20,243 nucleotides of DNA, from IMG/VR virus record IMGVR_UViG_3300035130_000194, positions 1-20,243 of that record; one strand, given 5' to 3'. The translations under genes and the position numbers were made by a program. The notes beneath the pieces were generated by a model. It searched no databases. It was not told the origin of the DNA and was given only the letters and a program-made list of their open reading frames with translations. Below, piece by piece: positions 6,661 through 19,902 of this stretch; within the stretch, counting starts at the first letter, position 1, and each line of letters starts with the position of its first letter. The stretch is from a virus.

Positions 6661-8214
6661 TTATATATTTCCGTTCCATACTGTTTCGGGTTTTCCTTTT
6701 TTGTGCATATCTTCCGGCAACTGGTATATGGGCTTGCCGTGAATATCAGGCCATGTCACCATCAATTCCAAATGTCCCACAACCACACGATTCGCCTGCA
6801 ATACCATCTTGCCGCACTTTTCCATCGTCCGCCAGAATGTTATGTCCGCATCCGTCCTTCCCGGCCCCCACATACCATCGGCATCGGGTTTGGCAATAAA
6901 CCACGGATGCGGTATGTCCATCAAATCGCTTACTCTGATTGCCGTAAGTCCGAAATGACTAGTTGCAATCTTTGATGTTTCCGCCTTGAATTCGGCTAAA
7001 GGTATATCTTTACGCACCTGGCCGCTCTTGCTCTTACTCGTCATAAGCATCCTGTAATGTCCCCTGCCTATCTGGGTGGATGAAACGGCCGCCGCCTCCG
7101 GGTGCTCGTACATTAATCTAAGTAATTCCTCCACATCCGCCCGCTTAAAAACGGTATCGTAATCGACGGTAATTATGATATTTGCTCCATCATCGATTAC
7201 ACACTGCATACCCCGTTCGAGACACTGGCCCCAGTACGCACCCTGCACCTTCATAATAGGAATCGCCAGGGGACTCATCGCCTCAAATACACAGCTCATA
7301 TTATCGTGGAATCCCAGGCGCGGAACGCTCATTACGCAGGCCACCTTAGCCATCGCCCTCTTGTCGGCAACGATGATACCCTGCGGCCGATTCGCAGGCT
7401 CTTTGGCCGGGTCTTTAGTGGCCGATATAAAGCCCCTGCACTCACTCAACTGGGCGGGCCTGTCCGTTAATGCCCATGCGTCGACATCTTGCCAGCCCGC
7501 CGACCGCACCATCTCGCAAAGGCACTGAAGCGTCGGACACCACCAATTATTATCGTTATTGCCGTATTGCCTGCCCGGGTAGAATTCCATCACCATCTCG
7601 TTATTGGGATACCCCCTGTTAAGACCTCCCCGATAGGGCGAATAATCATCAGCCTCGGCGGTTTCGATGTATATCGAGCCGTCACTAACTTTTGATATTA
7701 AATCCAAGGCCAGCAATGGATACCGAAGGTGATATAAGGTTCCAAACAGGAATATCACATCGAAATGCCCGAGTTTCTCAACCTCATAAACCGATTTATA
7801 TAACCGTGAAACATATTGCATTTCAGAATATTGTGATTTATGGTTTGACCACATATTTTTACTTATTTTATGATTTTCTAATTTTACCTCTTCGGTAAAT
7901 CCGAAAGCCTCGCGGCATAAATCGAATGTCGCCCATTTATTACGTTTAGTTTTTTCCGGCGAGCCGAGATCGTCGCTGAAGTCGTCGATAGCGATTACCT
8001 CTTTAGCCCCGCGCTTTAGTGCCTCGAATGTCCAGTATCCGTCCCACGCTCCTATGTCCAAAACCCGCTTGCCGGTCAGGTTTTCGGGGATCCCGTACCT
8101 TTCGGCGTTAATCGGCGCCCAGCCCGGCGTTACGGTTCCATCCGGCAGTTCTATTTTATGATACCAGTAAGGAATTTCTTCAACTCTTTGAGCTATACTT
8201 TTTTCTTGCGACAT
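6661..8214 (-). CDS. Fusion of a SAM-dependent methyltransferase and a GT-A glycosyltransferase
   Basis: The 517-residue protein is read from ATG 8214, because AAGGAG lies seven bases before it. An upstream ATG pair at 8235 would include that site in the coding region. Residues about 45-260 form a class I methyltransferase: motif I VLDIGAWDGYW (51-61), acidic residues in IAIDDF, and the GTLYHLRYPL segment (158-167) typical of the CmoB/DUF1698 branch. Residues about 288-517 look like a GT-A glycosyltransferase: the VDYDTVF block carries a DxD motif (351-353) for metal and nucleotide-sugar, followed by SHFGLTAIR, RTDADITFW and VVVGHLELMVTWPD. There is no signal peptide. The gene sits between capsid and connector genes, so virion glycan modification is plausible, but the substrate is not visible. 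Both catalytic cores look intact. Confidence 0.85.
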   Translation of the reverse strand: MSQEKSIAQRVEEIPYWYHKIELPDGTVTPGWAPINAERYGIPENLTGKRVLDIGAWDGYWTFEALKRGAKEVIAIDDFSDDLGSPEKTKRNKWATFDLCREAFGFTEEVKLENHKISKNMWSNHKSQYSEMQYVSRLYKSVYEVEKLGHFDVIFLFGTLYHLRYPLLALDLISKVSDGSIYIETAEADDYSPYRGGLNRGYPNNEMVMEFYPGRQYGNNDNNWWCPTLQCLCEMVRSAGWQDVDAWALTDRPAQLSECRGFISATKDPAKEPANRPQGIIVADKRAMAKVACVMSVPRLGFHDNMSCVFEAMSPLAIPIMKVQGAYWGQCLERGMQCVIDDGANIIITVDYDTVFKRADVEELLRLMYEHPEAAAVSSTQIGRGHYRMLMTSKSKSGQVRKDIPLAEFKAETSKIATSHFGLTAIRVSDLMDIPHPWFIAKPDADGMWGPGRTDADITFWRTMEKCGKMVLQANRVVVGHLELMVTWPDIHGKPIYQLPEDMHKKGKPETVWNGNI

Positions 8215-8261
8215 TTTTTTCTCCTTGTTCATCATCTAATTACTAAACACTATTTAATGCC

Positions 8262-13195: not shown

Positions 13196-13336
13196 TTACT
13201 CTTTTAACGCATCTAATATTAATCCTGACCCTAAAATAAAAATCGCTAAACATATTCCGGTTTTCAGATTACAAATGTAAGTCCCTGCTGCAAAACCAAC
13301 CAGACATAAACCAACTGTCCCAACTATTATTCTCAA
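13196..13336 (-). CDS. 46-residue two-helix membrane peptide with TTG start
   Basis: A frame starting at TTG 13336 overlaps the large terminase stop (TTGA) and is open for 46 codons to TAA 13198-13196. GGAGAGG lies seven bases before the TTG, inside the terminase gene, which strongly supports translation. Residues 2-22 and 28-44 are two hydrophobic segments (RIIVGTVGLCLVGFAAGTYI and ICLAIFILGSGLILDAL) joined by a short CNLKTG loop. It therefore resembles a small hairpin membrane protein. Three Cys residues (11, 22, 29) are present. Its position between terminase and portal is unusual for a lysis gene. Function is unknown. It is too short for most gene finders. Confidence 0.65.
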   Translation of the reverse strand: MRIIVGTVGLCLVGFAAGTYICNLKTGICLAIFILGSGLILDALKE

Positions 13337-15060
13337 TTCAAATCCTCTCCCAGCGTTAATATCCCGCGGTCCTCATAGACCGATTTTTTCTCTTCCGGCA
13401 CCACCATCGCCCGGCCTAGTGCCATGATAATCATTACAATACCATCGATCCGGCCCGTTGATTTCTTTTTCGACGGTTTTATATTCTCCGCCGCATCCAT
13501 TTCGACCGCCACGTTCGAGGCCATCCATCGTAAAACCGGATGTCCCCCATGTGCTATTAACCTACTTAAAAGCAGCTCATTTAATTTCTTCATAGGTGCC
13601 GACATCGAGGCAAATCCCTGTCCGAACGAAACGAATTTGTCCTCTGGCATACCATCGTGTATAAACTGCTGTCGGGGCCCTTCGAAGTTCCACCTGTCGA
13701 ATGCCGCCTCTGCAATATTGAACCTGCTGCTGTCGGCCTCGAAATTCGCCTTGATAGTAGCATAATCGACTACATTGCCTTCGGTCAGTGTGATATACTT
13801 CTCCCGTTCCCATGTAAGATACGGCACCTTATCGAGCTTTTCTCTCCGCTCGGCATTGTCACGAGGCATATAGAGCCGAGGCACTACCCGCCATCGCTTG
13901 CAATCTTCATCCGGCTCGAACACCAAAGCATAACCTGCAATATCAATATTGGAAGATAAGTCAAATCCGGTGAAGCATCGTTTACCGATAAGCTCATCCT
14001 CATTTACCTCGAAGTCGCAGGCATCCCACGTTTCTATCGGCATCCAGCGAACATCCTGCTCGGTCCGGATATTCAAATGCAGCCGCTTAAATGTATTCTC
14101 ATAAGCCGGCACTTCATTCGCCCTTTCACACGCCTCTCGCAGGCTGTCTATCGAAACGCTCACACCCAAATTCGGATTGCCCTTTTTCCACGTCTTTACC
14201 TTTGTCCAGTCATCTTCCGGTTGCGCCTCGTAGATTACCGGCAGGAACCTTATATTATTAATCGCGCCCGTCCGCACCTTGCAGGCGTATTCGTATTTCT
14301 CGTTACAGATACTCTCCCGCATATAATCCGCTGTGGTCAGATGTATCATCAAAGGCTGCAGCCGATTTAAAGATGTCATCGCAGTCTCAAGTACGTCGAC
14401 AAGGTCCCTGTTCTTTTGAACGTGCAGTTCATCGACAATAACTACATGCGGATTGCCGCCATGTTTTGTATCCGCATCGCTGCTGAGCACCTTTATAAAC
14501 GACTGGTCCGATTCGCGCACGATAGTCCGGGATGCCTTGTAATCCTGTACCCGGGATTCCATCTCAATCTCGTTATGAATCATGCCCGCTATATGCCGAA
14601 ACGATAGGGTCGCCTGGTCCCGCTCGCCGGCAGCGCAAAAATTCTGTTGACCTATCTCTTCATCCAGAAAAAATATCGCATTCATAATCGCCGCCGCCAG
14701 CGGCGTCTTGCCGTTCTTGCGGCAGACGTAAATTAATACCTCGCGGAACCGTCGCACAGTCCGCCCGTAAGAATCCTCCATGAGCCAGCCGAATATATTG
14801 GCGACGATTGCCTTTTCCCATCTCTTTAAAATAAAAGGCTTGCCCGCCAAGGCACCTTCGATATGCGTGCAGCATGTCTCTATAAAATCGATATAGTATT
14901 GAGCCTTTTCTGCATCGAACCAGCAGTCGTCCGCGCCCCTGAACGGGTCGTATTCCGGCAGGCTGCACAGCAGATTTCGCCATGCCTTTGTAACTCGGGG
15001 CCGATGATTTTTAACTTTAGGCCGCGTTCGCCTTTTTGGTTTTTGTAAAGTCGTCGTCAT
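13333..15060 (-). CDS. terL: Terminase large subunit
   Basis: The 575-residue protein, read from ATG 15060, is the DNA packaging ATPase and headful nuclease. A longer frame reaches 15135 but crosses a palindrome and has no homologous look, so I keep the shorter start, which lacks a strong Shine-Dalgarno. Residues about 113-119 (CRKNGKT) are the deviant Walker A of HK97/YmfN-type terminases, and VVIVDELHV (206-214) is Walker B with its catalytic Glu. The nuclease part has Asp in GFDLSSNIDIAGY, AAFDRWNFEG and GRIDGIVMII, the three acidic positions of the RNase H-like fold. It is followed by the portal gene, as usual. It is separated from the small subunit by about 4 kb, which is unusual. Confidence 0.96.
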   Translation of the reverse strand: MTTTLQKPKRRTRPKVKNHRPRVTKAWRNLLCSLPEYDPFRGADDCWFDAEKAQYYIDFIETCCTHIEGALAGKPFILKRWEKAIVANIFGWLMEDSYGRTVRRFREVLIYVCRKNGKTPLAAAIMNAIFFLDEEIGQQNFCAAGERDQATLSFRHIAGMIHNEIEMESRVQDYKASRTIVRESDQSFIKVLSSDADTKHGGNPHVVIVDELHVQKNRDLVDVLETAMTSLNRLQPLMIHLTTADYMRESICNEKYEYACKVRTGAINNIRFLPVIYEAQPEDDWTKVKTWKKGNPNLGVSVSIDSLREACERANEVPAYENTFKRLHLNIRTEQDVRWMPIETWDACDFEVNEDELIGKRCFTGFDLSSNIDIAGYALVFEPDEDCKRWRVVPRLYMPRDNAERREKLDKVPYLTWEREKYITLTEGNVVDYATIKANFEADSSRFNIAEAAFDRWNFEGPRQQFIHDGMPEDKFVSFGQGFASMSAPMKKLNELLLSRLIAHGGHPVLRWMASNVAVEMDAAENIKPSKKKSTGRIDGIVMIIMALGRAMVVPEEKKSVYEDRGILTLGEDLN

Positions 15061-15100
15061 TATGAGAACGATTTTAAGGCGTGAAAATGATGGTTGTCTA

Positions 15101-15116
15101 ACAAGTGAATACTTGT
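15101..15116. promoter_or_regulatory. 6-4-6 inverted repeat upstream of the large terminase
   Basis: ACAAGT-GAAT-ACTTGT is a perfect 6-bp inverted repeat with a 4-base centre. GTGAAAATGA occurs on both sides, at 15081-15090 and 15122-15131. This looks like an operator with flanking direct repeats, or a binding site used in packaging. The function is inferred only. Confidence 0.45.
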
Positions 15117-15162
15117 AAAATGTGAAAATGAACAAAAAAACGGTACTGAAATGTGTTTTTAA

Positions 15163-15274: not shown

Positions 15275-15742
15275 TTAGTCACTTTGCAATTTTAACTTTT
15301 TTATTATTTCATTTGGAACATTAAACAATCCCTGATTACCTCTAAAACGAATAGATTCAATACGTCTAATATTCCGCAACAGCCACATATATCTGCCAAT
15401 ATTATAATCGCCAAAAGAATACTCGTCACCTTCAGGCAAAAGTGAATTTACAAAATTAAAACTTTCGTTTTTGTTTATGATCTTCTGGCAATCATATAAA
15501 TCAACCATTGCTATAATACAGCCAAACGAGAAGATGTTTTTAGAGAATATCTGATTATCTGATTTCAAAGCAGAATAAAAAGGCTCCTGATTACATATAT
15601 CAGCTAAATTCTTATTCCATTTATCGGCCGCATGAATTAATAATAATCCCCGATGAGAAGTGTACCAGGATCGCGTCTCAATTTTCTTGGCCCCTATGGA
15701 AATTAAATACGCCCATGGGTTGTATAAACTTATACACTTCAT
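15275..15742 (-). CDS. ASCH-domain protein (PUA-like, nucleic-acid binding)
   Basis: This 155-residue protein starts MKCISLYNPWAYLISIGAKK, then IETRSW and HRGLLLIHAADKW. The pattern I-S-L-x-x-P-W-A, G-x-K-x-I-E-T-R-x-W and the LLIHA strand is the signature of ASCH domains, a PUA-like fold that binds RNA or modified nucleotides. A strand FGCIIAMVDLYDC and the YMWLLRNIRRIE segment fit the second half. The start lies two bases after the stop of the AAA ATPase gene (TAAATATG), so they are co-transcribed and probably coupled. Codons are AT-rich, unlike the terminase and head genes. What it binds is not visible. In phages such proteins often accompany nucleic-acid modification or translation control. 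Confidence 0.85.
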   Translation of the reverse strand: MKCISLYNPWAYLISIGAKKIETRSWYTSHRGLLLIHAADKWNKNLADICNQEPFYSALKSDNQIFSKNIFSFGCIIAMVDLYDCQKIINKNESFNFVNSLLPEGDEYSFGDYNIGRYMWLLRNIRRIESIRFRGNQGLFNVPNEIIKKLKLQSD

Positions 15743-15744
15743 AT

Positions 15745-16392
15745 TTATTTCAACATATCGCCAGATTCGATTGATTGCAGCATCGCCCTGAAATTATTCT
15801 GACATTTTTCAGCCAGTTTTTTATATGATTCAAGCGGTTTACCGTCTAATTTTTCCTTTTGTGCAATCTTTTTACAATGCTTAGCAAAAGCCATTTTCAC
15901 ATATCCACTGTTCGCAAGTTCAATACAAATACATCGACTCAATAACGGACTTGAATCAATTTTGTCATCGAATAAATCTTTTTGACCGGCCTTCGTAGTT
16001 GTGAAAATAAACGTAACATGTTTCGGTATCCGCTCCAACATACCCAGTAATCTTCTGATAATCCATGACTTCAATCCGTGAGATTCATTGATTATAAATA
16101 CCCTGCCTCCCTTACCGGGCGCGCAATAATTCATATTTTCATTTATAATCTCAATCTCTTTCGTATCCAAAGAGTCCGCCGAATCATATTCATTGATAAA
16201 TAATTCGTCGGCCATTCGATTCGCAATTATTCTGGCTATCGTTGTCTTTCCGGTCCCGGACGATCCGTTTATCCAAAAAGCTTTGCCACCAAAACCACGT
16301 TTTGCTATCGCCCTGATTTTACGAACTGCACTTTCCTGACCAACCATATTACTCAATTTAGTCGGTCTGTATTCTTCGTATAAACTTGCCAT
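15745..16392 (-). CDS. Clamp-loader-like AAA+ ATPase with Asn in Walker B
   Basis: This 215-residue protein starts MASLYEEYRPTKLSNMVGQE, the opening of DNA polymerase III gamma/tau and RFC-type clamp loader subunits (Y-R-P ... VGQ). Walker A is GSSGTGKT (43-50). Walker B reads RVFIINESHGL (97-107), with Asn102 where family members carry Asp but the catalytic Glu103 kept. Sensor 1 is FIFTTT (128-133) and the SRC motif with the arginine finger is at 152-154. The small helical lid follows; the C-terminal collar domain of full clamp loaders is absent. Start ATG 16392 has AAAGGG seven bases upstream. Codons are AT-rich. It could load a clamp, remodel DNA or serve as a regulatory ATPase. No clamp gene is visible here. 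Confidence 0.88.
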   Translation of the reverse strand: MASLYEEYRPTKLSNMVGQESAVRKIRAIAKRGFGGKAFWINGSSGTGKTTIARIIANRMADELFINEYDSADSLDTKEIEIINENMNYCAPGKGGRVFIINESHGLKSWIIRRLLGMLERIPKHVTFIFTTTKAGQKDLFDDKIDSSPLLSRCICIELANSGYVKMAFAKHCKKIAQKEKLDGKPLESYKKLAEKCQNNFRAMLQSIESGDMLK

Positions 16393-16415
16393 TTCTTAAC
16401 CCTTTCAAAAAAAGT

Positions 16416-16556
16416 TTATTTATTGAATATTTCGCATAAAAAACATTTTTTCCCACTTCTTTCAATTACATAAAATTTCTCTTTTTGAAGAAAATACTTC
16501 CAACACCAACAACATACCTTAATTATTTTTTCGCTTTTAATGTGTTTGATTTTCAT
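16416..16556 (-). CDS. 46-residue Cys-rich peptide, probable zinc binder
   Basis: An ATG at 16556, with AAAGG eight bases upstream, opens a 46-codon frame to TAA 16418-16416. The peptide starts MKIKHIKSEKIIKVCCWCWK and ends CFLCEIFNK. CCxC near residues 15-18 and CxxC at 38-41 give four or five Cys spaced as in a small zinc ribbon or knuckle. Lys-rich flanks would suit nucleic-acid binding. It lies 23 bases upstream of the AAA ATPase gene, in the same AT-rich cassette. Coding is supported by the site and composition, but length and lack of homologues I can name limit certainty. Confidence 0.6.
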   Translation of the reverse strand: MKIKHIKSEKIIKVCCWCWKYFLQKEKFYVIERSGKKCFLCEIFNK

Positions 16557-16574
16557 TTTCTAACCTTTCAAAAT

Positions 16575-16613
16575 AACCCAGGCCCCCCGGCAACAAGCCA
16601 AGGGGGCTGGGTT
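16575..16613. terminator. Strong GC hairpin after the 105-residue gene
   Basis: On the minus strand AACCCAG (16613-16607) pairs with CTGGGTT (16581-16575) and an inner CCCCC pairs with GGGGG around a 13-base loop, with one bulged C. The following RNA is ATTTTG, a weak T-run, so termination may be partial or the hairpin may stabilise the mRNA end. It sits in the 74-base gap between the unknown 105-residue gene and the Cys-rich peptide gene. Confidence 0.5.
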
Positions 16614-16630
16614 AAAAAATGCTTAATTGA

Positions 16631-16948
16631 TCAAGAAACATAAACGAGACGATACTTGCCCGTATCCAATATATATAGATCGCAACGTTGTTCGCCTTTA
16701 ATTCGTTGAGTACCCATCATTTCAACAACTCGACCTCCCTGCAATTTTGCATATTCAGCAGGAATCGCCTCAACTTCACCAACTTCTTTAATCTCACGAC
16801 AAGCGTCCGCAAAATTCTCAACAGTATCACCCGTCACAGTGATGTCGCTCTCAACGCAACTAATTGACCGCTCTTCATCAAGCCATTTACAAAATTCAGC
16901 AGCCAACTTATAAGCATCTGATTGTGATTTTACTTCTTGAATTGCCAT
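16631..16948 (-). CDS. Conserved-looking 105-residue protein of unknown function
   Basis: The start ATG 16948 follows GAGGTGACAAA, a clear Shine-Dalgarno. The sequence begins MAIQEVKSQSDAYKLAAEFC, then KWLDEERSISCVESDITVT, a helix-rich first half. The second half (about 60-105) is beta-like: VEAIPAEYAKLQGGRVVEMM, then CDLYILDTGKYRLVYVS at the end. No enzyme motif, signal peptide or membrane segment is seen. It lies directly behind a promoter and an intrinsic terminator of about 100 bases, so its expression may depend on read-through. I do not recognise a family. It could be a small regulatory or anti-host protein, but that is only a guess from the neighbourhood. Confidence 0.7.
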   Translation of the reverse strand: MAIQEVKSQSDAYKLAAEFCKWLDEERSISCVESDITVTGDTVENFADACREIKEVGEVEAIPAEYAKLQGGRVVEMMGTQRIKGEQRCDLYILDTGKYRLVYVS

Positions 16949-16962
16949 TTTGTCACCTCAAT

Positions 16963-17020
16963 AAAAAAACCTTGCCGGCTGGATAATCGCAGGCACGGAG
17001 ACTTGCAATAACCGGCAAGG
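16963..17020 (-). terminator. Intrinsic terminator directly upstream of the 105-residue gene
   Basis: CCTTGCCGG (17020-17012) pairs perfectly with CCGGCAAGG (16978-16970), followed by seven T (16969-16963). The loop contains a further imperfect stem. The T-run ends 14 bases before the start codon and the Shine-Dalgarno sits between them, so translation of the next gene needs read-through or a second promoter. Confidence 0.8.
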
Positions 17021-17064
17021 ATTTTGGTCTGATTAGTTAATTGATTGTACCATTGATTATCCAT
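17021..17064 (-). ncRNA. Leader RNA with antiterminator-like complementarity
   Basis: From the predicted start near 17064 the RNA has TGGATAATC (17063-17055), which is perfectly complementary over nine bases to GATTATCCA in the terminator loop (16988-16980). It could form a pseudoknot or compete with the terminator fold. The full transcript from 17064 through the T-run is about 100 nt, so it may also be a small RNA. Confidence 0.45.
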
Positions 17065-17070
17065 ATATAT

Positions 17071-17099
17071 ATTATCGACTATTATGATTTTAAAGTAAA
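17071..17099 (-). promoter_or_regulatory. Candidate promoter for the leader RNA
   Basis: TTTACT (17099-17094), a 17-base spacer and GATAAT (17076-17071) match the -35 at four and the -10 at five of six positions. It lies about 120 bases downstream of the ABC-GNAT stop and drives the leader described next to it. Confidence 0.5.
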
Positions 17100-17223
17100 G
17101 AAAAAAATGGAAAAAATCAGGTTTTTTTTTCGCCATAAGACCTAAATATATAAGGAGTTATGGCTATTTTGGGATATTTTTCTGATTTCTCGTGTTTTTA
17201 TCGTCTTTTTACGATAGAAATGA

Positions 17224-18309
17224 TCACTTTCCTATATATTCAAAACTTGCGATCGAACATTTTCTGCCCGTTTTTTCTAACCATCTAAATGTCTGTTTTT
17301 TTCCTCTGTGTTTAACTGAACCTGTTTTCAAAAAATTTTTAACTTTCCATTCTTTGCAGTTTTTTAATCCGTGAATCATCGCCGGATGTGAGCTTGTAAT
17401 GCCAAATCTCTTACCCATATTTTTTCGATAAGATGCCACCGTATTTAATACGGCCCTGCCGATTCCAACGCCCTGAAAATCAGGCAATACAACTATCCTG
17501 TGAACCCTGTCGTAATTTTTATGACCGGCACTGGGTAATAACGCGCAAAATGCAACCAGATTATTATTTATAAATCCGCCAAAACACTTCGCGGTTTTAT
17601 GAAGATTGCCGCTTAAATAATGATGGTTCTTAAACATTGTCCAATAGTCTCGCGATATTTTTCTGATTTCAATTTTGATTTTCGGTCGCCGAAGTAACAC
17701 CTGTCGATAAGTATAATCGCTGGTATCAAATATCCAGTTTGGTTCAAGCCATTTGACAATATCATTATGACATGAAATCGCTATCATTCGTGATTTTGTC
17801 TTGCGTATCGCTTTCGATATTGCGTGAGAACATATCTTGGCAACTTCCCTGTCAACAACCGAAGAAAATTCATCAATAACAAAAAAGTCCTGCTCTTTAT
17901 ATTCACATATCGCCCTCGCTAACTCAGCCCGAAACTTTTCGCCGTTACTCAATATTCGAAATGGTTTTAGCCAGGAAGGAGGCGAAGAAAATCCTACCGA
18001 ATTAAGAGCGTATAATATCTCCTGTATTTTTAGTTTTTTAGGGAAATCATCGATTATCGCTTTTTTATCATGCCATTTGAAAGAATGATGTACGTTATTA
18101 TCAAATATCTTGTTTATAAGAACACTTTTTCCCGATCCGCTTGGACCTATTATTAAACCGATATCCCAATCCGTATTTTCAATTGGTAAATCTATGTGAT
18201 AACTATGCCTAATTTTATTTTTATGCGGCAAATCATAAATCGACTTCAATTGAGATATGCGAAAACTCTCATTGACATCACATTCAATCATATAGTCAAG
18301 AGTCGGCAT
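17224..18309 (-). CDS. ABC ATPase fused to a GNAT acetyltransferase
   Basis: This 361-residue protein has two domains. Residues about 48-200 are an ABC ATPase: Walker A GPSGSGKS (55-62), signature LSNGEKFRAELARA (120-133), Walker B DFFVIDE (141-147) and a switch His181 in AISCHND. Residues about 209-361 are a GNAT fold with the acetyl-CoA loop QGVGIG (279-284) after HRIVVLPDF. This fusion resembles COG2401 (ABC-type ATPase fused to a predicted acetyltransferase), which has no settled function. It lacks membrane segments, so it is not a transporter but probably a soluble, possibly DNA-related ATPase. Start ATG 18309 has AAAGGAT six bases upstream and lies inside the ParB-like gene, overlapping it by 22 bases. 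The two are therefore coupled. Codons are AT-rich. Confidence 0.85.
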   Translation of the reverse strand: MPTLDYMIECDVNESFRISQLKSIYDLPHKNKIRHSYHIDLPIENTDWDIGLIIGPSGSGKSVLINKIFDNNVHHSFKWHDKKAIIDDFPKKLKIQEILYALNSVGFSSPPSWLKPFRILSNGEKFRAELARAICEYKEQDFFVIDEFSSVVDREVAKICSHAISKAIRKTKSRMIAISCHNDIVKWLEPNWIFDTSDYTYRQVLLRRPKIKIEIRKISRDYWTMFKNHHYLSGNLHKTAKCFGGFINNNLVAFCALLPSAGHKNYDRVHRIVVLPDFQGVGIGRAVLNTVASYRKNMGKRFGITSSHPAMIHGLKNCKEWKVKNFLKTGSVKHRGKKQTFRWLEKTGRKCSIASFEYIGK

Positions 18310-18896
18310 TTAAATCCTTTCTCACATAATAATTCATAACATTTCTTTTGCTCATCTTCATCAATACATTCAACAAGCACATTGTTTTGTGTCTCAGGAA
18401 TTTGAACATCGTCTTTTTTATCTTCCTCTTTTTGCATATACCCCTCGATCTGTTTGGCATCCAGCGCGGTAAAGTCCAGGTTATATTTCGCCTTCTCTAA
18501 CCGTGCCATAACGTCCGACATCTTCTCGGCGTCCGTCTCAGCGAATTCCTGTACTATATTATCAGCCAGAAGCACCGCCCGCTCCTCGGACCTGGATTTA
18601 AAATCCTGAAAATCCACCGGCGCCTTTTTTAGCCCAAGTTTCTGAGCCGCCGCAAGCCTGCAGTGGCCCGATACTATCAGTCCCGATCGCCTGGACACTA
18701 CAATCGGGTGCCGCCAGCCATGGCCCTTTATTATCGTTGCCAGCTTATCGACCTGCTTTTCCGGGTGCGTATTAGGATTCTCCGGGTTCGGCTTTAATGT
18801 ATCGACAGCCACCATCTTTTTGTACGAGCAGTGAACGCCAATCCCACACTTAGCCGGCTTCTTTTTTTTGATTGTTTTTTTAGTTTTTTTCGCCAT
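18288..18896 (-). CDS. ParB-like (Srx/ParB fold) protein
   Basis: I start this protein at ATG 18896 (202 residues) rather than an upstream TTG at 18926, because the Lys-rich MAKKTKKTIKKKKPAKCG opening is the more natural beginning. The ParB/Srx domain spans about 28-130: VDTLKPNPENPNTHPEKQVD, then GHGWRHPIVVSRRSGLIVSG with the nucleotide-binding GHCRLAAA motif (77-84), and a following RAVLLADNIV helix. The C-terminal VLVECIDEDEQKKCYELLCE, then GFKCRLL is a recurrent tail in phage ParB-like proteins. No HTH partition domain follows, so plasmid-like partitioning is unlikely. In phages such proteins are linked to DNA binding, nicking or to methylase partners. Overlap with the ABC-GNAT gene suggests a joint task. 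Confidence 0.88.
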   Translation of the reverse strand: MAKKTKKTIKKKKPAKCGIGVHCSYKKMVAVDTLKPNPENPNTHPEKQVDKLATIIKGHGWRHPIVVSRRSGLIVSGHCRLAAAQKLGLKKAPVDFQDFKSRSEERAVLLADNIVQEFAETDAEKMSDVMARLEKAKYNLDFTALDAKQIEGYMQKEEDKKDDVQIPETQNNVLVECIDEDEQKKCYELLCEKGFKCRLLTI

Positions 18897-18953
18897 TGAT
18901 CTGTCCCGCTTTCTATTTACCAGCAAATCCCGATAAAATTGATTGGATAAATA

Positions 18954-19343
18954 TTATTTATTTAATAAATTGAAGTTTTCATAGATGTTGCCGACATTCT
19001 CATGCTCAATCGAGCAAATCATTATTCCTTCCTCGCCACTTGTAGAATTAAAGACAGGAAGGTCTATGCAATACGCGCCGCTTTCGGCTTGAAATATTTT
19101 TCTAAAATACGTTTCTTGACCGACTTTCACTTTAACAATATCGTTTATCCAATCTTCTTTGCCATTTTTATCAAACTGATTAGTGAATAACATAAATATT
19201 AAATCTTGCCCGCCAACCCAATTTATTGTTCTTGAACAATTTCTATTAAGACCTTTTGTCGTAAGTGGAGGTAAATATTCCATGTGCTTTGTGTCGTTAT
19301 GCCATACCCGTAATTTTATAATTGTATGGTTCATCTTGTTCAT
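18954..19343 (-). CDS. YopX-like phage protein
   Basis: The 129-residue protein is read from ATG 19343, giving MNKMNHTIIKLRVWHNDTKH at the start. A longer frame to 19388 overlaps the small terminase and lacks a ribosome-binding site; ATG 19334 is a possible alternative. I-K-L-R-V-W near the start, the centre FTNQFDKNGKEDWINDIVKV and the ending NVGNIYENFNLL match the YopX family (PF09643 type), a common small phage protein of unknown function related to a beta-barrel fold. Its KNGKEDWINDIVKV segment is the conserved D-K-N-G-K-E-I-x-x-x-D-I-V motif, here with W-I-N in place of the usual residues. It lies directly after the small terminase gene. AT-rich codons again. Confidence 0.8.
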   Translation of the reverse strand: MNKMNHTIIKLRVWHNDTKHMEYLPPLTTKGLNRNCSRTINWVGGQDLIFMLFTNQFDKNGKEDWINDIVKVKVGQETYFRKIFQAESGAYCIDLPVFNSTSGEEGIMICSIEHENVGNIYENFNLLNK

Positions 19344-19377
19344 CGCCTTTCTTTTTAAATAAACTCTTTTTTCTTTC

Positions 19378-19902
19378 TCAAGCCCCATTGCTTTTATTAT
19401 TAAAAAACCTGCTCTTTTTATTATCCGTTGATTTCGGTTTTATAGTCAATCCTGCCCGGCCGGGCGGTGACAGGCCCAGATCGTTCGTGATTTTACGCAG
19501 GCGTTCCCATGCCGCATTGCGGATTGACAGGGCCGGATGCTGTATTATATTACCACCGGATTCGATGACAGTGCCATCTTTAAGTTTTTTCTTCTTTTTT
19601 TTCGTAATTATTAAAGGGCTCTTGACCAGGCTCTCAGCCTCGCGATACTCGGCATAAGCCTTGCAGTATAGAGCTATATAAGTCCGGTCCGCCTCGATTA
19701 TCGTCCCCATTTTCTCCAAAATAGGTATAATCCGCTTCCATTCCTTCCGGGCATCGCCCGTAAGCCACTGCGGGCAGGCCGGCCTTACGTACTCCAATTC
19801 GCCGCCTCTACTGTTCTTCGCCCCTGGCTTTTGCTTTGCCCGCCACGACCCCCTTATTTTTAAGGTCGGCTTCGGTGTCGGTTTCGGTCCGCGTTTACCC
19901 AT
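19378..19902 (-). CDS. terS: Terminase small subunit, P27 family
   Basis: This 174-residue basic protein begins MGKRGPKPTPKPTLKIRGSW, the characteristic N-terminus of P27-type small terminases. It recognises the packaging start on concatemeric DNA and delivers it to the large subunit. The helical core includes CPQWLTGDARKEWKRIIPIL, then EADRTYIALYCKAYAEYREA, followed by a Lys run and HPALSIRNAAWERLRKITND with the L-G-L-S-P segment that closes the family domain. The start ATG has only a weak AAGAAAG site. Two candidate promoters lie upstream, and this is the first gene of the late block in the window. Its distance of more than 4 kb from the large subunit is the odd point. Confidence 0.93.
   Translation of the reverse strand: MGKRGPKPTPKPTLKIRGSWRAKQKPGAKNSRGGELEYVRPACPQWLTGDARKEWKRIIPILEKMGTIIEADRTYIALYCKAYAEYREAESLVKSPLIITKKKKKKLKDGTVIESGGNIIQHPALSIRNAAWERLRKITNDLGLSPPGRAGLTIKPKSTDNKKSRFFNNKSNGA

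What the first reader, a model, noticed from the sequence alone, without database searches (positions are those of the whole stretch)
15275..19343. A largely AT-rich cassette of about 4 kb splits the two terminase genes
Small and large terminase genes are normally adjacent. Here they are separated by YopX-like, ParB-like, ABC-GNAT, an unknown 105-residue gene, a Cys-rich peptide, a clamp-loader-like AAA ATPase and an ASCH protein. Most of these have visibly more AT-rich codons than the flanking packaging genes, although the ParB-like gene is closer to the structural genes. Two NTPases, a ParB-fold protein and two putative nucleic-acid binders together could be a packaging-control, genome-protection or counter-defence module. 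Sequence content is seen; the joint function is inferred.
Basis: partly seen in the sequence, partly recalled or inferred. Interest (0 to 1): 0.62.

Follow-up and report, generated by a model that had tools for sequence, protein, structure and literature searches.

The report
Phage DNA-modification genes beside packaging genes
Between the two DNA-packaging genes of this phage fragment sits a conserved gene pair (ParB-like plus ABC-ATPase/acetyltransferase) that most likely decorates phage DNA chemically just before packaging, so that bacterial restriction enzymes cannot cut it; the other genes inserted there look like unrelated passengers.

Summary
In detail: TerS and TerL are split by an AT-rich block encoding YopX, ParB, ABC-GNAT, a 105-aa ORF, a Cys-rich peptide, a DnaX-like AAA and ASCH. 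The seven genes are not one module. Only ParB + ABC-GNAT is a conserved unit, and it lies just upstream of terminase in most relatives. The last ~35 residues of ParB are a separate module: present at 162/174 window-like ABC-GNAT loci, fused with ParB and ABC-GNAT in one ORF at three loci, and standing alone without ParB in Mu-like phages. It co-varies with ABC-GNAT more than the ParB domain does. In the window GC drops from 0.53 to 0.36 at the ParB/module junction.

Best functional clue: in ~80-90% identical P. gingivalis transposable phages, one terminal slot holds module+ABC-GNAT+formyltransferase, or a Mom DNA-modification gene, or nothing. With a published prediction for GNAT+ABC proteins (PMC7824862), this favours late DNA-base acylation as anti-restriction. 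Mom homology was not detected, so it probably works like Mom without being Mom. Chemistry is untested. AAA, the 105-aa ORF and the Cys peptide had no counterpart at the 174 loci; YopX and ASCH recur only in a minority.

The parts
19378..19902 (-). TerS, P27-family terminase small subunit (left border)
   Evidence: PF05119 2e-24; TIGR01558 1e-23
18954..19388 (-). YopX-like protein (likely ATG at 19343); probable passenger
   Evidence: PF09643 9.6e-8; phrog_98 3e-20; rare at ABC-GNAT loci
18288..18896 (-). ParB/sulfiredoxin-fold protein carrying a C-terminal ~35-residue module that is the conserved partner of ABC-GNAT
   Evidence: PF02195 4.7e-7; AF2 pLDDT 88; residues 24-158 match KorB/Noc/ParB, Z 12.6-12.1
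18288..18395 (-). C-terminal module of ParB (NNVLVECIDEDEQKKCYELLCEKGFKCRLLTI); stand-alone version is phrog_28816
   Evidence: HMM hits at 162/174 loci; stand-alone ORFs in Mu-like phages
18288..18309 (-). 22-nt overlap of the ParB end with the ABC-GNAT start
   Evidence: Same 22-nt overlap at 66 window-like loci and 31/31 Firmicute-type loci
17224..18309 (-). ABC ATPase fused to GNAT acyltransferase (phrog_11143), predicted DNA-base acylating enzyme
   Evidence: phrog_11143 2.4e-101; AF2 pLDDT 91.4; ABC fold 1-207, GNAT fold 212-360; near-invariant Walker A, LSxGE signature, DE, H181, F226..H230-Y231-L232 and QGxG
16968..17021 (-). Terminator-like hairpin with U-run between ABC-GNAT and ORF105
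   Evidence: -28.8 kcal/mol, z -2.9
16631..16948 (-). Unknown 105-aa ORF; no relative found
   Evidence: No Pfam or NCBIfam hit, no significant PHROG hit, no phage tblastn hit
16573..16615 (-). Strong terminator-like hairpin between ORF105 and the Cys peptide
   Evidence: centroid -32 kcal/mol, z -3.7 for the stretch
16413..16556 (-). Cys-rich 46-aa peptide (MKIKHIK...CCWCW...CFLCE), zinc-ribbon-like by eye
   Evidence: translation; no homologue at the other loci
15745..16392 (-). DnaX/gp44-like AAA+ ATPase without the C-terminal clamp-loader part; passenger
   Evidence: TIGR02397 5.8e-25; phrog_5846 1.3e-27; about 29% to phage clamp loaders
15275..15742 (-). ASCH (PUA-like) protein of the ASC-1/TRIP4 type; possible nucleic-acid reader, loosely associated
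   Evidence: PF04266 3.5e-4; phrog_3193 2.6e-36; human ASC-1 ASCH 2e-13
13333..15135 (-). TerL terminase large subunit (right border; likely ATG at 15060)
   Evidence: PF20441 1e-40, PF03354 4e-30

Best explanation
The core of the cassette is a two-gene DNA-modification unit placed beside the packaging genes. ParB (CTPase-fold, DNA-handling) carries a C-terminal adaptor module that docks ABC-GNAT; the ABC ATPase half engages DNA in an ATP-dependent way, and the GNAT half transfers an acyl group from acyl-CoA to a base amino group. Made late, together with terminase, it marks DNA about to be packaged so that restriction systems of the next host do not cut it. The remaining genes are separately acquired morons; ASCH might read the modified DNA. 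SHOWN: the pair, its module, the fusions, the position by terminase, intact ABC and GNAT folds and motifs, and replacement by Mom at one slot in relatives. INFERRED: complex formation, DNA as substrate, acyl chemistry, timing, anti-restriction effect.
For: Pair conservation: module found at 162/174 window-like ABC-GNAT loci (6 of the 12 misses are contig edges), mostly immediately upstream with a 22-nt overlap; 31/31 in the Firmicute type and 73/77 in the formyltransferase type. Three loci (L085, L124, L138) encode ParB-module-ABC-GNAT as one ORF. Module distances track ABC-GNAT distances (rho 0.49) better than ParB-domain distances do (0.23; bootstrap difference 0.13-0.38). TerL lies downstream on the same strand in 119/174, median about 0.5 kb, and 21/21 in the Firmicute type. 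Mom swap: P. gingivalis phages 006a, 007a, 008a, 009a, 011a have the ABC-GNAT unit, 012a, 013a, 014a, 015a a Mom homologue (phmmer 5e-26 to 5e-27) and 010a nothing, between conserved flanks. Microbacterium phage Appa has ParB directly before Mom. ParB also occurs fused to N6/N4 DNA methylases beside TerS in two TerL relatives (L188, L193). Published prediction for the GNAT+ABC family, naming pT24 (PMC7824862), a homologue of this protein (E 2e-43).
Against: No chemistry was measured and no modified base is known to me for this family. The GNAT domain shows no significant profile similarity to Mom (hhalign E 0.36); its nearest solved folds are ordinary acetyltransferases such as RimI, which acts on protein. 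The pT24-type subfamily lacks the ParB module altogether (0/77). A shared slot can also hold functionally different morons. Locus samples are the best-scoring 80 per scan and contain near-duplicates, so counts are not independent events.
Confidence: 0.64

Rival explanations
1. All genes of the block form one packaging-control or genome-protection module: the NTPases, ParB and the ASCH/YopX binders act together on DNA at packaging.
For: Co-location between TerS and TerL and shared low GC. ASCH is found near ABC-GNAT at 29 of 174 loci and 9/27 Firmicute-type loci.
Against: AAA, ORF105 and Cys peptide have no counterpart at the other loci; YopX is rare; ASCH is mostly on the opposite strand. Two hairpins split the block.
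Confidence: 0.08
2. ParB + ABC-GNAT is a packaging or terminase regulator: ParB clamps DNA near pac/cos and ABC-GNAT acetylates or remodels terminase or portal to time packaging.
For: Very frequent position directly upstream of TerS/TerL; the ParB fold is a DNA-sliding clamp fold in partition proteins.
Against: In Mu-like phages the unit sits at the far end of the late region, away from terminase, in the slot used by Mom, and 010a does without it; jumbo and T4-like phages carry ABC-GNAT far from any terminase seen.
Confidence: 0.12
3. The unit acetylates a host macromolecule (protein, tRNA) to disable defence or metabolism, with ParB as DNA- or NTP-sensing partner.
For: Nearest GNAT folds are RimI-type and small-molecule acetyltransferases. 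GNAT enzymes acting on aminoacyl-tRNA are known (general knowledge).
Against: Exchange with Mom at one slot, recurrent ParB partners of DNA-modifying enzymes, late-gene position.
Confidence: 0.12

Closest known systems
GNAT + ABC-ATPase predicted nucleobase acylation system (Iyer et al. 2013, doi 10.1093/nar/gkt573, as cited in PMC7824862; example Tenacibaculum phage pT24)
   Same: Same ABC + GNAT domain pair; the pT24 protein is a direct homologue (34%, E 2e-43).
   Different: The window type has ParB and its C-terminal module overlapping the ABC-GNAT start and sits by terminase; the pT24 type has neither module nor ParB. The 2013 paper was not available here, so whether it mentions ParB is unchecked.
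Phage Mu Mom (com-mom)
   Same: GNAT superfamily, late slot, an H-Y motif at the same place by eye, and interchangeable position in P. gingivalis phages.
   Different: No significant profile similarity; Mom has no ABC ATPase, lacks the QGxGxG motif, and its partner Com is a zinc finger, not the ParB module.
ParB-DNA methyltransferase fusions (phrog_498)
   Same: The window ParB matches the N-terminal third of phrog_498 (1.2e-37); such fusions sit next to TerS in TerL relatives.
   Different: Effector is ABC-GNAT in place of a methylase; the C-terminal module was not detected in the two fusions seen.
DpdB and DndB (ParB-family partners in DNA-modification systems)
   Same: ParB-superfamily protein beside a DNA-modifying enzyme (PMC12839542, PMC10853773).
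   Different: Different chemistry and partners; no Dpd or Dnd genes were seen here.

Membership tests
GNAT + ABC ATPase predicted nucleobase-acylation family (phrog_11143) | ABC ATPase with Walker A, signature, Walker B and H-loop | tested here: met
   Conserved G55-K61, LSNGE 120-124, DE 146-147, H181; ABC fold Z about 14 over residues 1-207
GNAT + ABC ATPase predicted nucleobase-acylation family (phrog_11143) | GNAT domain with acyl-CoA loop | tested here: met
   PF00583 2.9e-7; QGVGIG; GNAT fold Z 15.3 (3.9 A over 137) for residues 212-360
GNAT + ABC ATPase predicted nucleobase-acylation family (phrog_11143) | Homology to the named example pT24 | tested here: met
   34% over 97%, E 2e-43
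GNAT + ABC ATPase predicted nucleobase-acylation family (phrog_11143) | Acylates a base in DNA | not testable with these tools
   Needs LC-MS or an enzyme assay; only a prediction in the literature found
Mom family | Significant sequence/profile similarity to Mu Mom | tested here: not met
   hhalign of 28-sequence GNAT profile against Mu Mom: E 0.36, probability 0.2
Mom family | Occupies the Mom slot of transposable phages (analogy, not homology) | tested here: met
   P. gingivalis phages; shown for relatives, not for the window phage itself
ParB/sulfiredoxin superfamily | ParB N-terminal fold | tested here: met
   PF02195 above cut-off; Z 12.6 to KorB (3.0 A over 129), 12.3 to Noc (1.7 A over 91, 32% identity)
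ParB/sulfiredoxin superfamily | CTPase motif GERR as in partition ParB | tested here: inconclusive
   Window has SGHCR at the expected place, read by eye; not compared residue by residue with a CTP-bound structure
Clamp loader (DnaX/gp44) | AAA+ core with Walker A and SRC motif | tested here: met
   TIGR02397 5.8e-25; GSSGTGKT and LLSRC in the translation
Clamp loader (DnaX/gp44) | C-terminal oligomerisation/collar domain | tested here: not met
   Protein ends at 215 aa; matches cover only the N-terminal AAA part of the profiles
YqfB-type ASCH amidohydrolase (N4-acylcytosine) | Thr-Lys-Glu catalytic triad | tested here: inconclusive
   By eye the Thr24 position is Glu in the window (KKIETR); YqfB itself was not aligned; triad from PMC6972931

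The most novel reading that the evidence does not exclude
A new ATP-dependent kind of DNA-base acyl modification: a ~35-residue adaptor (phrog_28816, fused to ParB or alone) brings an ABC-GNAT acyltransferase to DNA about to be packaged. In one subfamily a PurN-like formyltransferase follows ABC-GNAT directly (53/62 loci, HPSxLP motif in 62/63), which suggests two-step chemistry: an aminoacyl (for example glycyl) group put on the base and then N-formylated, as PurN does with glycinamide ribonucleotide.
Probability: 0.33. Interest if true: 0.82.

Novelty: new variant of a known kind. Interest (0 to 1): 0.56.

Why it matters
Phages use bulky DNA modifications to defeat restriction and CRISPR; few chemistries are known and most predicted systems are untested. 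This work turns a vague prediction (GNAT + ABC) into a defined, widespread unit with an adaptor, a usual place by terminase and sibling phages that differ at one slot (ABC-GNAT, Mom or nothing), which is close to a ready-made experiment. Well-studied laboratory phages such as Lactococcus P335 carry it with the genes labelled unknown or ABC transporter, so the modification could be looked for directly.

Tried and rejected
One seven-gene module: rejected, genes not co-conserved. ORF68 as a gene: rejected (no hits; overlaps a terminator-like hairpin). ABC-GNAT as an ABC transporter part (annotation in several records): not supported, since it has a fused GNAT domain and no permease gene was noticed beside it. 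Membership in Mom: not supported. MADS mad3, PtuA and other PADLOC hits: ABC-domain cross-hits only. DNA-level search of the cassette in phages: no match. Single-sequence searches for relatives of ABC-GNAT and AAA in viral contigs: none. Rfam: nothing above gathering. Repeats flanking the cassette as insertion scars: none convincing; no tRNA. The module has no Pfam match. The structure lists for the two models covered the ABC, GNAT and ParB parts, not the module alone. Paper searches found no experimental work on the family.
Full report
CHECK OF THE OBSERVATION. The window is a 20,243-base virus record with packaging and head genes all on the minus strand. Between P27 TerS (19378-19902) and TerL (13333-15060/15135) lie YopX, ParB, ABC-GNAT, a 105-aa ORF, a Cys-rich 46-aa peptide, a DnaX-like AAA and an ASCH protein. 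Every one of the measured genes except ParB is clearly poorer in GC (0.33-0.41) than the 15 flanking genes (0.493 +/- 0.031), and GC3 falls from 0.54 to 0.36. Among relatives of this TerL, 15 of 17 with both genes visible keep TerS next to TerL; the closest relative (L176, 64% identity) has about 1.1 kb between them and L187 about 1.6 kb with other genes. So the junction is an occasional insertion point in this lineage.

WHICH GENES BELONG TOGETHER. I collected 174 loci of the window-like ABC-GNAT search (80 viral contigs, 80 genome contigs that are largely Planctomycetes, phage records, and the window), then 80 of a formyltransferase-associated type, 80 of a pT24 type and 32 of a Firmicute type in which ABC and GNAT are separate genes. 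ParB-type N-terminal domains were found at 157 loci of the first set; AAA, ORF105, the Cys peptide and ORF68 only in the window; YopX at 5 and ASCH at 29 loci. Hence the unit is ParB + ABC-GNAT, and the others are passengers, ASCH possibly excepted. Two hairpins, at 16968-17021 and 16573-16615, would end transcripts before and after ORF105, in keeping with several morons side by side.

THE C-TERMINAL MODULE OF PARB. Aligning ParB partners showed that their last ~35 residues (consensus VIVECxDExEQxxxYExLxxxGxKCRxxxx) are better conserved than the ParB domain. A profile of this stretch hits 162 of 174 loci; 6 of the 12 misses are contig edges. The ORF that carries it overlaps the ABC-GNAT start by exactly 22 nt at 66 loci, and at 31/31 Firmicute-type loci. 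In 36 of 77 formyltransferase-type loci it is carried by an ORF of under 95 residues without a ParB domain; this stand-alone form is phrog_28816, function unknown. Three loci encode ParB domain, module, ABC and GNAT as one polypeptide. Pairwise distances of the module follow those of ABC-GNAT (Spearman 0.49) much more than those of the ParB domain do (0.23; 31-column windows of ParB reach at most 0.28; bootstrap interval of the difference 0.13-0.38; 127 loci). In the window, GC drops from 0.53 to 0.36 at 18440, between the ParB domain and the module (log-likelihood gain 18.9), as if module + ABC-GNAT had been joined to a resident ParB. I infer that the module is the docking piece for ABC-GNAT. 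The pT24 type lacks it (0/77).

THE ENZYME. The AF2 model of ABC-GNAT has pLDDT 91.4. Residues 1-207 match ABC ATPases (Z about 14) and 212-360 GNAT acetyltransferases (Z 15.3 to 1y9k, 14.6 to RimI). ATP and acyl-CoA motifs are near-invariant, as is F...H-Y-L in the GNAT domain (171 of the 174 set, formyltransferase type 80/80, pT24 type 71/80). ParB is modelled at pLDDT 88 and matches KorB, Noc and ParB.

FUNCTION. TerL is downstream on the same strand in 119 of 174 loci, median about 0.5 kb, often with TerS between (72 cases; the window is the only case with TerS upstream). In Lactococcus P335 the order is Orf23 (22-nt overlap), ABC, GNAT, one ORF, TerS, TerL. The strongest functional clue is a natural replacement series in P. 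gingivalis transposable phages with ~80-90% identical tail genes: the last slot holds the stand-alone module, ABC-GNAT and a formyltransferase in five phages, a Mom homologue in four and nothing in one, between conserved left and right flanks. Microbacterium phage Appa has ParB directly before Mom, and two TerL relatives of the window have ParB-methylase fusions before TerS. GNAT coupled with an ABC ATPase has been predicted to acylate a nucleobase (Iyer 2013 as cited in PMC7824862). Together these favour late DNA modification for protection against restriction. Not shown: substrate, product, timing, effect. Homology to Mom was not detected, so this is a claim of working like Mom.

OTHER GENES. 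[quoted passage not shown] ASCH/EVE-type PUA domains are described as binding or recognising modified bases in other systems (PMC12707154, PMC10853773). A YqfB-like deacylase is unlikely because the Thr nucleophile position looks like Glu, but I judged this by eye. AAA is a short DnaX/gp44-like protein.

LIMITS. Loci are the top-scoring ones per scan, with some duplicates (for example L070 and L159). TerL and ASCH searches used few seeds and miss divergent families. No experiment was possible.

Noticed in passing
L008:6855-8580, L013:6849-8724, L014:630-2473; L202-L281: A PurN-like formyltransferase gene follows ABC-GNAT directly in one subfamily (53 of 62 loci with enough sequence), hinting at a second, formylating step in the putative modification.
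   Followed up: partly
window 6661-8235: A 524-aa protein with an N-terminal SAM methyltransferase and a C-terminal part that looks like a glycosyltransferase by eye sits among the head genes; a close homologue occurs in L194 downstream of the capsid gene.
   Followed up: partly
L085:889-2601, L124:7392-9089, L138:7374-9125: Natural single-chain ParB-module-ABC-GNAT fusions, useful for structural work.
   Followed up: yes
L187:1156-3286: TerS and TerL are split by a different pair of genes (weak glycosyltransferase match and a methyltransferase), so the same junction accepts unrelated cargo.
   Followed up: partly
L197:3469-4621 (Microbacterium phage Appa): A ParB-like gene lies directly before a Mom homologue; it lacks the ABC-GNAT module.
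   Followed up: partly
L004, L005, L015, L009: In Firmicute phages and Tenacibaculum phage pT24 the ABC and GNAT halves are separate genes or frames and are annotated as an ABC iron-siderophore transporter, ABC transporter or hypothetical protein, a likely misannotation.
   Followed up: partly
window 16945-17045, minus strand: A long-armed hairpin with a U-run just before the ORF105 start could be an attenuator-like leader and not a simple terminator.
   Followed up: no
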